Made by a program: the position numbers and the translations under genes. A stretch of 64,000 nucleotides of DNA, taken from the NCBI RefSeq assembly GCF_011761985.1, contig NZ_JAASQT010000001.1:434001-498000 (forward strand). The letters are read 5' to 3'. Of this stretch, positions 45,111 through 49,248 are shown one piece after another. The stretch comes from Brevundimonas terrae (GTDB lineage Bacteria; Pseudomonadota; Alphaproteobacteria; Caulobacterales; Caulobacteraceae). Within the stretch, counting starts at the first letter, position 1. The number at the start of each line of letters is the position of its first letter. The notes beneath the pieces were generated by a model. That model did not search any database. It saw only the letters and a program-made list of their open reading frames with translations, and was not told where the DNA came from.

Positions 45111-46514
45111 TCACAGGCGTTGTCTCCAGTCTGCGATACGGGCGCGGACCTGATCGGGGGCCGTACCGCCGAAGGACTGGCGGCTGGCGCACGAGGCCTG
45201 CGGAGTCAGGACAGCATAGACACCGTCATGGATGCGCTCGTCCAGCGCCTTCAATTCGGCAATCGGCAACTGGCCCAGATCAAGGCCCAGCTGCTCGGCG
45301 CGTTTCACGGCGGCACCGGTCACATGGTGGGCTTGGCGGAACGGCAGGTTCAGTTCACGCACCAGCCAGTCGGCCAGATCGGTCGCGGTCGAGAAACCGG
45401 CACCGGCAGCGGCGGCCATTTTTTCCGTGTTCGGACGGAAGGCCGCGATCATGGCGGTCATCGAGCTGAGCGCGAGGTTCAGAGCATCAAAGGCCTCGAA
45501 CACCGGCGGCTTGTCTTCCTGCATGTCCTTGGAATAGGCCAGCGGCAGACCCTTCATCACCGTCGTCAGGGCAATGAAGGCCCCGTTGATACGGCCGGTC
45601 TTGGCACGCACCAGTTCGGCGGCGTCCGGGTTGCGCTTTTGCGGCATGATCGACGAGCCGGTCGTCAGATCATCCGGCAGGGTGATGAAGCCGAACATCG
45701 GCGTCATCCACACCACAATCTCTTCGGCCAGACGCGACAGGTGACCGGCGGCAATCGAGGCATCGGCCAGACATTCCAGCGCGAAGTCGCGGTCGGAAAC
45801 GGCATCGAGGCTGTTGCCCATCGGGCGGTCGAAGCCGAGCGCCTGTGCGGTAGCATGGCGGTCAATCGGGAAGGGCGAACCAGCCAGAGCCGCAGCGCCC
45901 AGCGGGTTTTCGTTCATACGGGCACGGGCATCGGCAAAGCGGCTGGCATCGCGGCCAAACATTTCGACATAGGCCATCAGGTGGTGGCCCAGCGTCACCG
46001 GCTGTGCGGTTTGCAGGTGCGTGAAGCCCGGCATCAGATCGCCTGCGTGTTGTTCGGCGCGGTCCAGCAGGGCGCGTTGCAGGTCTTTGAGTTGTTCAAT
46101 CGTGCGGTCGGCAGCGTCGCGGACCCACAGGCGGAAATCGGTGGCCACCTGATCGTTGCGCGAACGGGCGGTGTGCAGACGGCCCGACGGTTCGCCGATC
46201 AGTTCAGACAGGCGCATTTCCACGTTCATGTGGATGTCTTCATAGGCATCGCGGAACGGGAAGGTGCCGTCCTTGATCTCGCCCTCGATCACATCCAGAC
46301 CGCCGAGGATGGCGTCGGCATCGGCCTGCTGGATGATGCCCTGCTTGGCCAGCATGCGGCAATGTGCCCGCGATCCGGCCAAGTCCTGTGCCCACAGGCG
46401 TTTATCAACGCCGATAGAGACGTTAATGGCCTGCATGATATCTGCGGGCTTGGCGCTGAAGCGGCCACCCCATAGAGACTGACCCTGAGGGGTTTTCGAA
46501 GGCGTATCGGACAT
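45111..46514 (-). CDS. argH: Argininosuccinate lyase
   Basis: Last step of arginine synthesis, splitting argininosuccinate into arginine and fumarate. The 467 residues begin [19 protein letters not shown] and include [28 protein letters not shown], and the superfamily signature [12 protein letters not shown]. The start ATG chosen overlaps the tlpA start by two bases within CATG on the opposite strand. A longer frame upstream is likely noncoding because it runs into tlpA. Confidence 0.96.
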
Positions 46515-47130
46515 GAGCGGCTCTAAACGGACTAAGGCGATCGGCATAGGCGTGATTGCAACAGTGGCGGCAATCGGCGGTGCGGCCCTGCTATACGTCA
46601 ATCAGGACGGCGGGAGCAAAGGTTCTGATGCCGCTTCGACGAATAGCGGTGCTTTTGCCGCCCATGCCAAGGGTCCGTTGGCGCGATTGCAGTCGCCGGA
46701 GCCTGTCCCTGCCCCCGATTATGCGTTTCAGGATGCGGACGGAAATCCGGTCACCTTTGCCGATTTCAAGGGCAAGGTGACGGTGGTGAATCTGTGGGCG
46801 ACATGGTGCGCGCCGTGCAAGATCGAGATGCCGACGCTGGCGGCGCTGGCCAAGCGCTATGAGGGGCGCGAGGACTTTGCGGTAGCGGTTATCAGCATGG
46901 ATACCGACCGTGCACAGGAGGCGGCCAAGGCCTTTATCGCCGAGAATGCGCCGCTGAAATATTATGCCGATCCAAAATTTCAGCTGGCCTTCGAGTTCCC
47001 CGGCAAGGGGGCCATGCCGCAAACCATGATCCTTGATCGCGAGGGTCGGGTGGTGGCGGTGATGGTGGGCGAAGCCGACTGGAACGGGCCGCAAGCGGTG
47101 GCCTTGATCGAAGACATTTTAAAACAATAA
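46513..47130 (+). CDS. TlpA-type thiol:disulfide oxidoreductase
   Basis: A membrane-anchored periplasmic thioredoxin-like reductant of 205 residues. The N-terminus has one anchor (about residues 8-28), then an Ala/Ser linker and the thioredoxin fold with the active site WCAPC at 98-102 (Cys99, Cys102), cis-Pro in GAMPQTMIL and typical [11 protein letters not shown]. It could reduce cytochrome c heme-binding cysteines or the CuA site as described for TlpA/CcmG-type proteins. It is divergent from argH with overlapping start codons. Confidence 0.9.
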
Positions 47131-47133
47131 AGA

Positions 47134-47147
47134 CTGCCCGAAGGCAG
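47134..47147 (+). terminator. Weak terminator after tlpA
   Basis: A 5-bp stem CTGCC / GGCAG with loop CGAA, followed by CCTGTTTTC. It is short, but the structured repeats that follow may add to termination. Confidence 0.4.
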
Positions 47148-47160
47148 CCTGTTTTCAGCT

Positions 47161-47319
47161 TGCCCTACCGCAAGCCGCCCGGCGGCTCGCTGCTTGAGGG
47201 CAGAAGCCCGCGTCGGGTCGGGAGGTCCCGAAGGGCCGACGAACGCGGGCCACTTATATTTTAAGTGCCCCTACCGCTCGCCGCACGGCGGCTCGCTGTT
47301 TGAGGGGCAGAAGCCCGCG
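47161..47319 (+). repeat. Direct repeat pair with hairpin potential (copies A and B)
   Basis: Copy A (47161-47212) and copy B (47266-47319) share a 52-54 bp unit beginning TGCCC(C)TACCGC and ending CAGAAGCCCGCG, with about four substitutions. The unit folds: the outer arms are TGCCCT/AGGGCA in A and TGCCCCT/AGGGGCA in B, where an inserted C is matched by an inserted G. A core GCCGCC/GGCGGC hairpin is present in A. Copy starts are 105 bp apart. The following hairpin AGCCCGCG/CGCGGGCT (47312-47338) closes copy B. Confidence 0.75.
47206..47250. repeat. Nested-hairpin repeat, copy A module
   Basis: A triple nested palindrome: outer GCCCGCG/CGCGGGC (47206-47212, 47244-47250), middle GTCGG/CCGAC and inner TCGGGA/TCCCGA. 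Its reverse complement reappears at 47814-47859, so this is a dispersed structured repeat of REP-like character. Confidence 0.7.
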
Positions 47320-47338
47320 CCGGATTTCAGCGCGGGCT
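47312..47338 (-). terminator. Hairpin after the Ala-rich lipoprotein gene
   Basis: An 8-bp perfect stem AGCCCGCG / CGCGGGCT with an 11-nt loop, 10 bp downstream of the lipoprotein stop (minus strand). It is part of repeat copy B; termination is plausible though the minus-strand T-run is missing. Confidence 0.45.
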
Positions 47339-47348
47339 ATTAAACCAC

Positions 47349-47678
47349 TTAGTGTTTTTCGAGCTTGGCGCGGGCTTCGGCGGCAGCCTTTTCAGTGGCG
47401 GCAGCGGCGTCAACAGCGCCATCCTTGATGGCAGTGCCAGCCTTGTCGGCAGCGTTCGAGGTGGCGGCAGCAGCGTCGGTCGCGGCAGCAGCCGTGGCGT
47501 CAGCAGCGCTGTCTACGGCCGTTGCGGCAGCGTCACCGGCATGTTCGGCAGCAGCCGTTGCATCGGCAGCCGCGGCAGAAGCATCGGCCTCGGCCTTGTT
47601 TTGTTCGGCTTGGGTGCAGGCAGCGGCACCGAGAGCCAGAACAGCGGCAGCAGCGATGGAAAGCGAACGAATACGCAT
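47349..47678 (-). CDS. Alanine-rich lipoprotein, unknown function
   Basis: A 109-residue lipoprotein. The signal MRIRSLSIAAAAVLALGAAAC has its lipobox Cys at residue 21. The mature region is almost entirely Ala, Asp, Thr, Glu and Lys, with a heptad-like spacing that suggests one long helix or coiled coil (ATAAAEHAGDAAATAVDSAADATAAA-type repeats, not reproduced in full). Such proteins are sometimes annotated as entericidin-like or spacer lipoproteins; no function can be assigned. It is flanked by structured repeats on both sides. Confidence 0.7.
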   Translation of the reverse strand: MRIRSLSIAAAAVLALGAAACTQAEQNKAEADASAAAADATAAAEHAGDAAATAVDSAADATAAAATDAAAATSNAADKAGTAIKDGAVDAAAATEKAAAEARAKLEKH

Positions 47679-48326
47679 GGGATCATCCCCCTCGAGGTTC
47701 TTGAAAACGGCCAACGCCAAGCTGGCCATTCCGCATAACGCCGTCGTGAGAGACTGGTTGCGAAAACGTGATCAGGAAAATTGGAACCACGGCTTTTTCC
47801 GTAAATTCTTAGCGGGCCGCGGTCGTCGGCCCTACGGGACCTCCCGACACGACGCGGCCTGTCACCTCGCGCGGGAAGTTATTCACGCGCTAGAGGCAGG
47901 CACCGTTGTTTGCGGTTACCCTCTGCGCCCGTGGCGGGCAGCTTTCGCAGACGACGAAAGCTGGAACGGTCCGAGTATCCACCTCGACCCTTGCCGGAAC
48001 CTCTTCGTCCAAGCGCATTGCGCCGACAGGCTCCACCGGCGTCATGCGTGCGCATGACCCCCGCTCTTCTCGCTCCCGCCGCCGCATCGGATCGCCGGCC
48101 GAGCGAGCCCTCCCCTGCGACGGGACACAGAGGATTATGCGGCAGGGCTCAGGTAGGACGCGTCGATGGGGGCCAATGCGCCGGTGGGCGTTGATTTCAT
48201 ACGGGTTATTGGCGTGGACTGTGGTGGCTGTGGCCTTATACCTAGCGGGTTTTGCGAGATGTGCGCCCTGCTCTGCTTGTCCGAAACGAAAGGAAGGTAG
48301 AGTTTTGCGCCAAACAGGAGGCCGTC
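47679..48326. other. Long intergenic region with a repeat copy
   Basis: About 650 bp between the divergent lipoprotein gene and the YCII-like gene. It holds repeat copy C (47814-47859). I find no convincing gene. The open frames here are Arg/Pro-rich and lack ribosome binding sites. The best is a short one from 48176 that begins with a hydrophobic stretch (WALISYGLLAWTVVAVAL) and then CAPCSAC before running into the next gene. Confidence 0.5.
47814..47859. repeat. Nested-hairpin repeat, copy C (inverted)
   Basis: The 46-bp match to the reverse complement of 47205-47250 is 41/46 by eye. The outer stem GGCCGCG/CGCGGCC is kept although bases changed on both sides: the C-G pair at stem position 2 in one copy is a G-C pair in the other. 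With copy A it brackets the Ala-rich lipoprotein gene in inverted orientation. Confidence 0.7.
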
Positions 48327-48779: not shown

Positions 48780-49121
48780 TTAGTCGGTTGGGGTTGGGGG
48801 TGACCATGCGGGGTCATGGGTGGGGTACCAGTCGGCGGCGAGGTCGTGCCAATCGGGGTTCTCGCGCTCGATGAGGGCGAGTTTCCATGCGCGGAGCCAT
48901 TTCTTGATGCGGCATTCGCGGTGGATGGCTTGGGCGATCAAGGCGTGGTGTTCGAACCAGACGAGGTTGATGCAGTCGTAGGTGTCTGTGAAGCCGGTGA
49001 GGCTGTGGGACTTGTGCTGCCAGACGCGGGCCGGAAGGTTCGAGGTGGAGCCGGTGTAGAGAGTGCCGTTTCGTTCGCTGGCCATGATGTAGGTGGCGAT
49101 GAAGGGGCGGCGCGGGTCCAT
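48780..49121 (-). CDS. Single-domain GIY-YIG nuclease
   Basis: A 113-residue protein made almost entirely of one GIY-YIG domain. Expected active-site residues are visible: Tyr11 (ATYIMAS), Tyr22 in LYTGSTS, Arg32 and His36 (ARVWQHK), Glu69 (HRECRIKKW) and Asn88 (ENPDW). A proline-rich tail (THDPAWSPPTPTD) ends it. Relatives in alphaproteobacteria are commonly annotated as UvrC-like or UPF0213 proteins and can occur in several copies per genome. It lies between inverted palindromic repeats, which hints at a mobile or repeat-processing role. Its codon and base usage looks more G-rich and irregular than its neighbours. Confidence 0.88.
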   Translation of the reverse strand: MDPRRPFIATYIMASERNGTLYTGSTSNLPARVWQHKSHSLTGFTDTYDCINLVWFEHHALIAQAIHRECRIKKWLRAWKLALIERENPDWHDLAADWYPTHDPAWSPPTPTD

Positions 49122-49150: not shown

Positions 49151-49191
49151 CGTCATCCTTCGACGAAGCGTAGCGAGATCGGGGGATCCAG
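49151..49191 (+). repeat. Palindromic repeat copy R1, right of the GIY-YIG gene
   Basis: Starts CGTCATCCTTCGAC and ends AGATCGGGGGATCCAG, with a short different middle (GAAGCGTAGCG). It is the inverted partner of copy L across the nuclease gene and begins 29 bp upstream of the nuclease start. Confidence 0.75.
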
Positions 49192-49216
49192 AAATGTGCA
49201 GGTGGGTGCGCGGGTA

Positions 49217-49248
49217 TCTGGATCCTCCGGTCAAGCCGGAGGATGACG
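49217..49248 (-). repeat. Palindromic repeat copy R2
   Basis: Minus-strand reading CGTCATCCTCCGG-CTTGA-CCGGAGGATCCAGA: a 9-bp perfect stem ATCCTCCGG/CCGGAGGAT around a 5-nt loop. It faces copy R1, so that GTCATCC/GGATGAC and GGATCCAGA/TCTGGATCC form concentric inverted pairs over 49152-49247. Confidence 0.75.

What the first reader, a model, noticed from the sequence alone, without database searches (positions are those of the whole stretch)
47161..47859. Second family of structured repeats with a compensatory base-pair swap
The nested hairpin at 47205-47250 recurs inverted at 47814-47859 (about 41/46 identical). Of the five differences, two occupy paired positions of the outer stem and exchange C-G for G-C, so structure is kept. 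Nearby copies A and B (47161-47212, 47266-47319) also differ by a paired insertion (TGCCCT/AGGGCA against TGCCCCT/AGGGGCA). Selection for the fold is the simplest explanation: a REP-like element, a recurring terminator or RNA module, or a protein-binding cruciform.
Basis: seen in the sequence. Interest (0 to 1): 0.6.

Follow-up and report, generated by a model that had tools for sequence, protein, structure and literature searches.

The report
Mobile hairpin repeats of Brevundimonas
The window carries copies of short DNA hairpins that have spread through the genomes of Brevundimonas bacteria and some phage-like contigs, keep their two arms matched as they diverge, and have no known enzyme that moves them.

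Summary
The window holds two unrelated palindrome families. Y (47161-47202, 47267-47308) has 39 model matches in this genome and occurs in 25 of 25 Brevundimonas genomes of one search, though G073 had none in another. X1 (47205-47257 and, inverted, 47808-47860) occurs in 14 of 41 genomes, all Brevundimonas. A third family, X2, lies elsewhere in the genome. In Y, 12 of 15 pairs change on both sides over 123 distinct copies. Y and X2 are insertions: of 30 fmt/truA loci, 19 are empty, 3 hold Y, 5 hold X2 and 3 were unreadable. Best reading: REP-like non-autonomous mobile hairpins kept by selection on the folded element. They lack GTAG and CGTC tags, often form head-to-tail arrays and share a one-sided A-rich tail. 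No RAYT-type transposase was found in this genome, and one in only 3 of 101 of the genus. They are not intrinsic terminators; the mover is unknown. The inverted X1 overlaps a separate structured element (about 47843-48070), absent from Rfam and found in 79 of 249 Caulobacteraceae genomes: the more novel by-product.

The parts
47161..47202 (+). Y element, copy A
   Evidence: model R1, 62.1 bits, E 7.1e-16; also a member of the training set
47205..47257 (+). X1 element with its A-rich side
   Evidence: model R2, 81.4 bits, E 1.4e-13; training member
47267..47308 (+). Y element, copy B
   Evidence: model R1, 59.4 bits, E 5.1e-15; training member
47808..47860 (-). X1 element, inverted copy
   Evidence: model R2, 78.2 bits, E 6.5e-13; training member
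47843..48070 (+). neighbouring structured element whose 5' part is overlapped or replaced by X1 here; the 3' end is uncertain
   Evidence: model R3 matches 47843-47996, 106.4 bits, not a training member; 47870-48070 is 88% identical to G024
46513..47130 (+). thioredoxin/TlpA-like gene that ends just before copy A
   Evidence: Pfam Redoxin, AhpC-TSA, Thioredoxin
47349..47729 (-). convergent lipoprotein-like ORF (lipobox seen by eye, no Pfam match)
   Evidence: ORF list, no family

Best explanation
Y, X1 and X2 are three families of REP-like, non-autonomous mobile hairpins of Brevundimonas (Y in weaker form also in three other Caulobacteraceae genera). Shown: many dispersed copies, empty and filled versions of the same sites (Y, X2), copies between genes of phage-like contigs (Y, X1), arms kept complementary through paired changes, head-to-tail arrays. 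Inferred: some enzyme recognises and moves a folded single strand (hairpin plus one-sided A-rich tail), so only copies that fold can spread, and copies settle mostly at gene ends and gene junctions. No RAYT/IS200-type Y1 transposase was found in this genome. Any host role (mRNA 3' protection, protein binding) is unproven.
For: Own genome: 39 Y matches at E up to 0.1. R1 in 25 of 25 Brevundimonas genomes. Covariation 12 of 15 pairs, 259 cells against 93 in shuffles, 0/500. Empty/filled sites: fmt/truA 19 empty, 3 Y, 5 X2, 3 unreadable of 30; tlpA junction filled here, without insert in G024; ABC-F upstream Y in 13 of 30 loci. Pairing kept at that fixed site: 91.0% of cells, score 0.228 against 0.105, 0/500. 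Phage-like contigs: 4 with Y, 9 with X1, phage-family proteins in 7 of 8 tested. One-sided tails. Convergent bias in own genome, 19 of 32 against 9 of 45 spaces.
Against: No mover identified and no movement seen within a species; no clear target duplication at fmt/truA (by eye). X1 and X2 covariation rests on few pairs and copies. Orthologous copies keeping their fold could mean host function as well as recent movement or gene conversion. Sites were collected with sequence patterns that favour well-kept copies. One Brevundimonas genome, G073, had no Y at E 1e-4. In the named loci the convergent bias is weak (29 of 137).
Confidence: 0.75

Rival explanations
1. The hairpins are mainly host-selected RNA modules (3' transcript stabilisers or attenuators) and their dispersal is secondary.
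For: Many lie close behind stop codons; Y orthologues keep their pairing at a fixed 5' site and, more weakly, inside a gene.
Against: No orientation bias: 29 same and 29 opposite in named loci, 5 and 7 in the own genome. G-U pairs no commoner than A-C, 28 and 34 of 2592 cells, a weak test. Presence varies between species at the sites read.
Confidence: 0.12
2. They are ordinary REPs moved by a RAYT that was lost from most genomes or is supplied in trans.
For: Layout like REPs: folded strand with conserved stem mismatches (passages of PMC8266576). Y1_Tnp matches exist in 3 of 101 genus genomes.
Against: 24 of the 25 genomes with Y have no Y1_Tnp match. No GTAG tag.
Confidence: 0.1
3. The repeats are intrinsic transcription terminators copied with gene ends.
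For: Convergent location in this genome.
Against: The T tract lies 5' of the Y hairpin; the other strand has an A-rich tail. The terminator scan hits only the separate hairpin at 47131-47150.
Confidence: 0.03

Closest known systems
GTAG-tagged REPs / REPINs with RAYT (TnpA-REP)
   Same: Short imperfect palindromes, many copies, near gene ends, some supply stop codons or lie inside genes, compensatory changes common (PMC3733652 parts 1, 2, 4; PMC3116915 passages)
   Different: No GTAG tag, no Y1 transposase here and few in the genus, close Y pairs mostly head-to-tail; [quoted passage not shown]
CGTC-tagged REPs of alphaproteobacteria
   Same: Palindromes without a known dedicated transposase, near gene ends
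   Different: No CGTC end tag and no AT-first stem in Y or X; a CGTC-like dimer sits separately at about 49151-49248 (seen by eye)
Rickettsia palindromic elements (RPE)
   Same: Palindromes that can lie in frame inside a gene; Y does so in an ABC-F gene
   Different: Unrelated host and layout as described in PMC3733652; no sequence comparison was made
Caulobacter CIR repeats
   Same: Intergenic repeats of the same order
   Different: CIRs are about 110 bp with a conserved GANTC (PMC2229807, passages); Y and X consensus have neither. The CIR paper itself is not held

Membership tests
GTAG REP / RAYT system | short multi-copy imperfect palindrome | tested here: met
GTAG REP / RAYT system | unpaired GTAG at one end | tested here: not met
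   no conserved tetranucleotide at either end of Y or X
GTAG REP / RAYT system | RAYT (Y1_Tnp, PF01797) in the genome | tested here: not met
   0 in own genome; 3 of 101 genus genomes
GTAG REP / RAYT system | cleavage and transfer of the folded strand | not testable with these tools
   needs biochemistry
CGTC REP | CGTC at one end, AT-first stem, CCA-like tail | tested here: not met
   alignments; X has an internal CGTC and a CCA-like flank but no AT-first stem
Caulobacter CIR | about 110 bp with conserved GANTC | tested here: not met
   Y and X consensus carry no GANTC and are shorter. The neighbouring structured element: GANTC in 6 of 20 printed segments, flanks included, 2 of them printed off the element, no shared position but +8 in two
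Intrinsic terminator | T tract directly 3' of the hairpin | tested here: not met
   T tract is 5' of Y; A-rich 3' of X1 and X2
Known RNA family | Rfam match at gathering score | tested here: not met
   0 matches in the window and L254; permissive scans gave only sub-threshold hits outside Y and X, and for the structured element none within it

The most novel reading that the evidence does not exclude
Y, X1 and X2, unlike in sequence (X1 and X2 share an outer stem) but alike in layout (hairpin plus one-sided A-rich tail), with Y and X2 able to use the same site, are moved by one machinery that is not a RAYT: a new class of bacterial hairpin mobile element, perhaps copied through a tailed single strand.
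Probability: 0.25. Interest if true: 0.75.

Novelty: new variant of a known kind. Interest (0 to 1): 0.5.

Why it matters
How REP-like repeats spread where no RAYT exists is open; the CGTC REP paper leaves it as a question (PMC3733652). Brevundimonas offers species with empty and filled versions of the same site and three families with one layout, which makes the search for the mover testable. The repeats also rewrite gene ends: Y supplies the last codons and stop of fmt in some species and an in-frame insert in an ABC-F gene in others.

Tried and rejected
Rejected: terminator; known Rfam RNA; a plasmid source (no match to 47130-47350 in the plasmid collection); Bordetella as a host (contig L106 is 91-93% identical over kilobases to a Brevundimonas contig, so very likely mis-binned); GTAG, CGTC and CIR membership. 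A strand test by G-U against A-C looked telling until its control: the structured neighbour shows the same balance (22 and 25) once the pairs whose commonest type is G-U are left out, so I treat it as weak. The X1 scan of the 80 named loci gave only 6 weak hits, those loci having been picked by Y. My first coordinate check was out of register by one base and was redone; the CGTC pattern missed the dimer that is visible by eye in its printout. Target-site duplications were looked for by eye only.

Results that do not exceed their shuffles: further pair types in Y, 41/500; X1 pairs with both-sided change, 31/500; X2, 101/500 for pairs and 459/500 for types; ABC-F upstream types 88/500; ABC-F internal pairs 61/500 and types 152/500; in the structured element the number of both-sided pairs, 21 against 18.7, 40/500. 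Shuffles ignore relatedness.

Limits: match counts per genome are lower bounds, since first-look candidates scored were capped at 150, 142, 54 and 12. E-values of my models are rough. The gene caller was a small script trained on this window. Locus tables used 30 of the 55 (ABC-F) and 30 of the 59 (TruA) matching genomes. Own-genome context uses 32 copies from 30 loci, of 39 matches. Among the 25 'genic' named copies several are pattern false positives, left in the counts.

Full report
What is there. The window is part of a 2.94 Mb genome. Exact Y sequences occur in 104 stretches of the species-level genome collection; the 80 listed carry the names Brevundimonas, Caulobacteraceae, Caulobacterales or unclassified bacteria or Alphaproteobacteria, plus one 'Bordetella' bin whose contig is 91-93% identical to a Brevundimonas contig. 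The genus is therefore taken to be Brevundimonas (inference).

The neighbouring copies A and B are another family. I call the 42-nt A/B family Y and the nested hairpin X1. A third family, X2, shares the X1 outer stem but has a different inner hairpin.

Copies and covariation. R1, a model built from 18 own-genome Y copies, finds 39 Y matches in this genome at E up to 0.1. Among 41 genomes it is positive in 25 of 25 of the genus and, weakly (best E about 2e-6), in 3 of 16 of other families of the order. In the family it is positive at E 1e-4 in 34 of 119 genomes and 4 of 22 genera: 16 of the own genus and 18 of three other genera with weaker scores; G073 of the own genus had none, and 65 negative genomes were not listed. 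R2 (X1) is positive at E 0.1 in 14 of 41 genomes, all of the genus; in two of them, G010 and G024, the best E is only about 0.004. Y covaries: 11 of 15 pairs change on both sides among 18 own copies and 12 of 15 among 123 distinct copies of named loci, 259 such cells against 93 in shuffles and 14-39 in slid controls. X1 and X2 rest on few copies and few changed pairs. An internal two-base mismatch of Y, GA opposite GA on the minus strand, is kept in 190 and 203 of 216 distinct copies found by a pattern, and likewise in the model alignment, while pairs around it change. Stem mismatches matter for recognition of E. coli REPs (PMC8266576, passages); that the minus strand is the folded one is inference.

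They are insertions. Between tlpA and the lipoprotein-like ORF the window has Y-X1-Y, whereas the closest match of that locus, G024, has a short spacer with only a terminator-like hairpin. At fmt/truA, where stop and start codons overlap in empty loci, 30 of 59 loci were read: 19 empty, 3 with Y, 5 with X2, 3 not readable as this junction. Y then supplies the fmt stop codon. Upstream of an ABC-F gene Y is found in 13 of 30 loci and inside the gene in 10 of 30, with a pattern that allowed up to 8 substitutions. In the upstream set pairing is retained (91.0% of cells, score 0.228 against 0.105, 0/500); inside the gene more weakly (score 0.147 against 0.067, 1/500), with two decayed copies. Four viral contigs hold exact Y and nine hold the exact X1 core. 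One protein from each of eight of these 13 contigs was tested: seven matched PHROGs families (baseplate, terminase, tail, connector, ParB-like) and one matched none, so the repeats have probably entered phage or prophage DNA. The plasmid collection had no match.

Layout. Over 244 distinct Y, T makes up 37-52% of the eight positions before the hairpin and 18-32% of those after it. X1 (44 copies) and X2 (40) are followed by five A-rich positions, 42-80% A. Read on one strand, all three are hairpin plus A-rich tail. [quoted passage not shown] The empty fmt/truA sites have no such tract, so the tail seems to come with the insert (by eye).

Context. In the own genome 19 of 32 classified Y lie between convergent genes, 12 unidirectional, 1 divergent, against 9, 25 and 11 of 45 window spaces (p 0.0007). 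In the named loci the skew is weak: 29 convergent, 58 unidirectional, 19 divergent, 25 genic (several false), 6 at contig edges, of 137. There is no orientation bias to genes: 29 and 29 in named loci, 5 and 7 in the own genome.

Mechanism. Shown: dispersal, insertion, paired change. Inferred: a mover that recognises the folded strand. PF01797 is absent here and present in 3 of 101 genus genomes, while the same search rang in 5 of 14 control genomes, Caulobacter vibrioides among them. Of the 25 genomes with Y, only G018 has a Y1_Tnp match. A G-U against A-C test gave 28 against 34 in Y, but its control showed low power, so DNA or RNA as the selected form stays open.

By-product. The inverted X1 overlaps the start of another element. 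Window 47870-48070 is 88% identical to G024, while the tlpA stretch is 75%. Related copies, nine each in G016 and G045 in that search, carry Y in one peripheral hairpin in 9 of the 16 copies printed; the second copy of this genome and one of G024 carry X2 in a loop. On 30 distinct copies 94.9% of cells pair (78.8% in shuffles), 186 cells change on both sides (53.7 in shuffles), score 0.423 against 0.135, 0/500, in an alignment fitted to the model; the number of changed pairs, 21 of 42, is not clearly above its shuffles (40/500). An earlier alignment not fitted to the model gave both-sided changes in 20 of 45 predicted pairs. Rfam has no match, and no tRNA or tmRNA was found. None was found in the 13 viral contigs. 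Whether it equals one of the Caulobacter CIR repeats could not be settled, since that paper is not held; a conserved GANTC is lacking.

Literature. Full-text searches on Brevundimonas with palindromic, REP, MITE and structured-RNA terms, on REP/RAYT with Caulobacter and on Caulobacter repeats listed no paper that, by title and abstract start, describes these families; only the best 5 to 20 papers were listed. A term look-up in PMC12306157 and PMC3733652 found no mention of Brevundimonas. Read: parts 1, 2 and 4 of 8 of PMC3733652; passages only of PMC3116915, PMC8266576, PMC2229807, PMC10969869 and PMC12306157. Most subscription journals are not in that library.

Noticed in passing
47843-48070 (+), paralogue at G000:C1:278970-279180 (-): A structured, multi-copy intergenic element without Rfam match, in 79 of 249 Caulobacteraceae genomes, covarying strongly; some copies elsewhere hold Y or X2 in a loop.
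   Followed up: partly
about 49151-49248: A dimer that looks like a CGTC-tagged REP pair (CGTCATCC...GGATCCA, inverted), seen by eye in the printout, next to a GIY-YIG gene at 48780-49121.
   Followed up: no
L118:634-672 and orthologues: Y lies in frame inside an ABC-F gene in 10 of 30 loci, two of them decayed.
   Followed up: partly
L106 (JAFKFS010000130.1): A contig binned as Bordetella that is 91-93% identical over kilobases to a Brevundimonas contig.
   Followed up: yes
L199-L201, L206, L211, downstream of tlpA: Other species hold a different inverted repeat there, like CCTTCTCCC...GGGAGAAGG (by eye).
   Followed up: no
G027, G035, G036: Weak R1 matches (126, 10 and 8; best E about 2e-6) in other families of the order, possibly a look-alike repeat family.
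   Followed up: no
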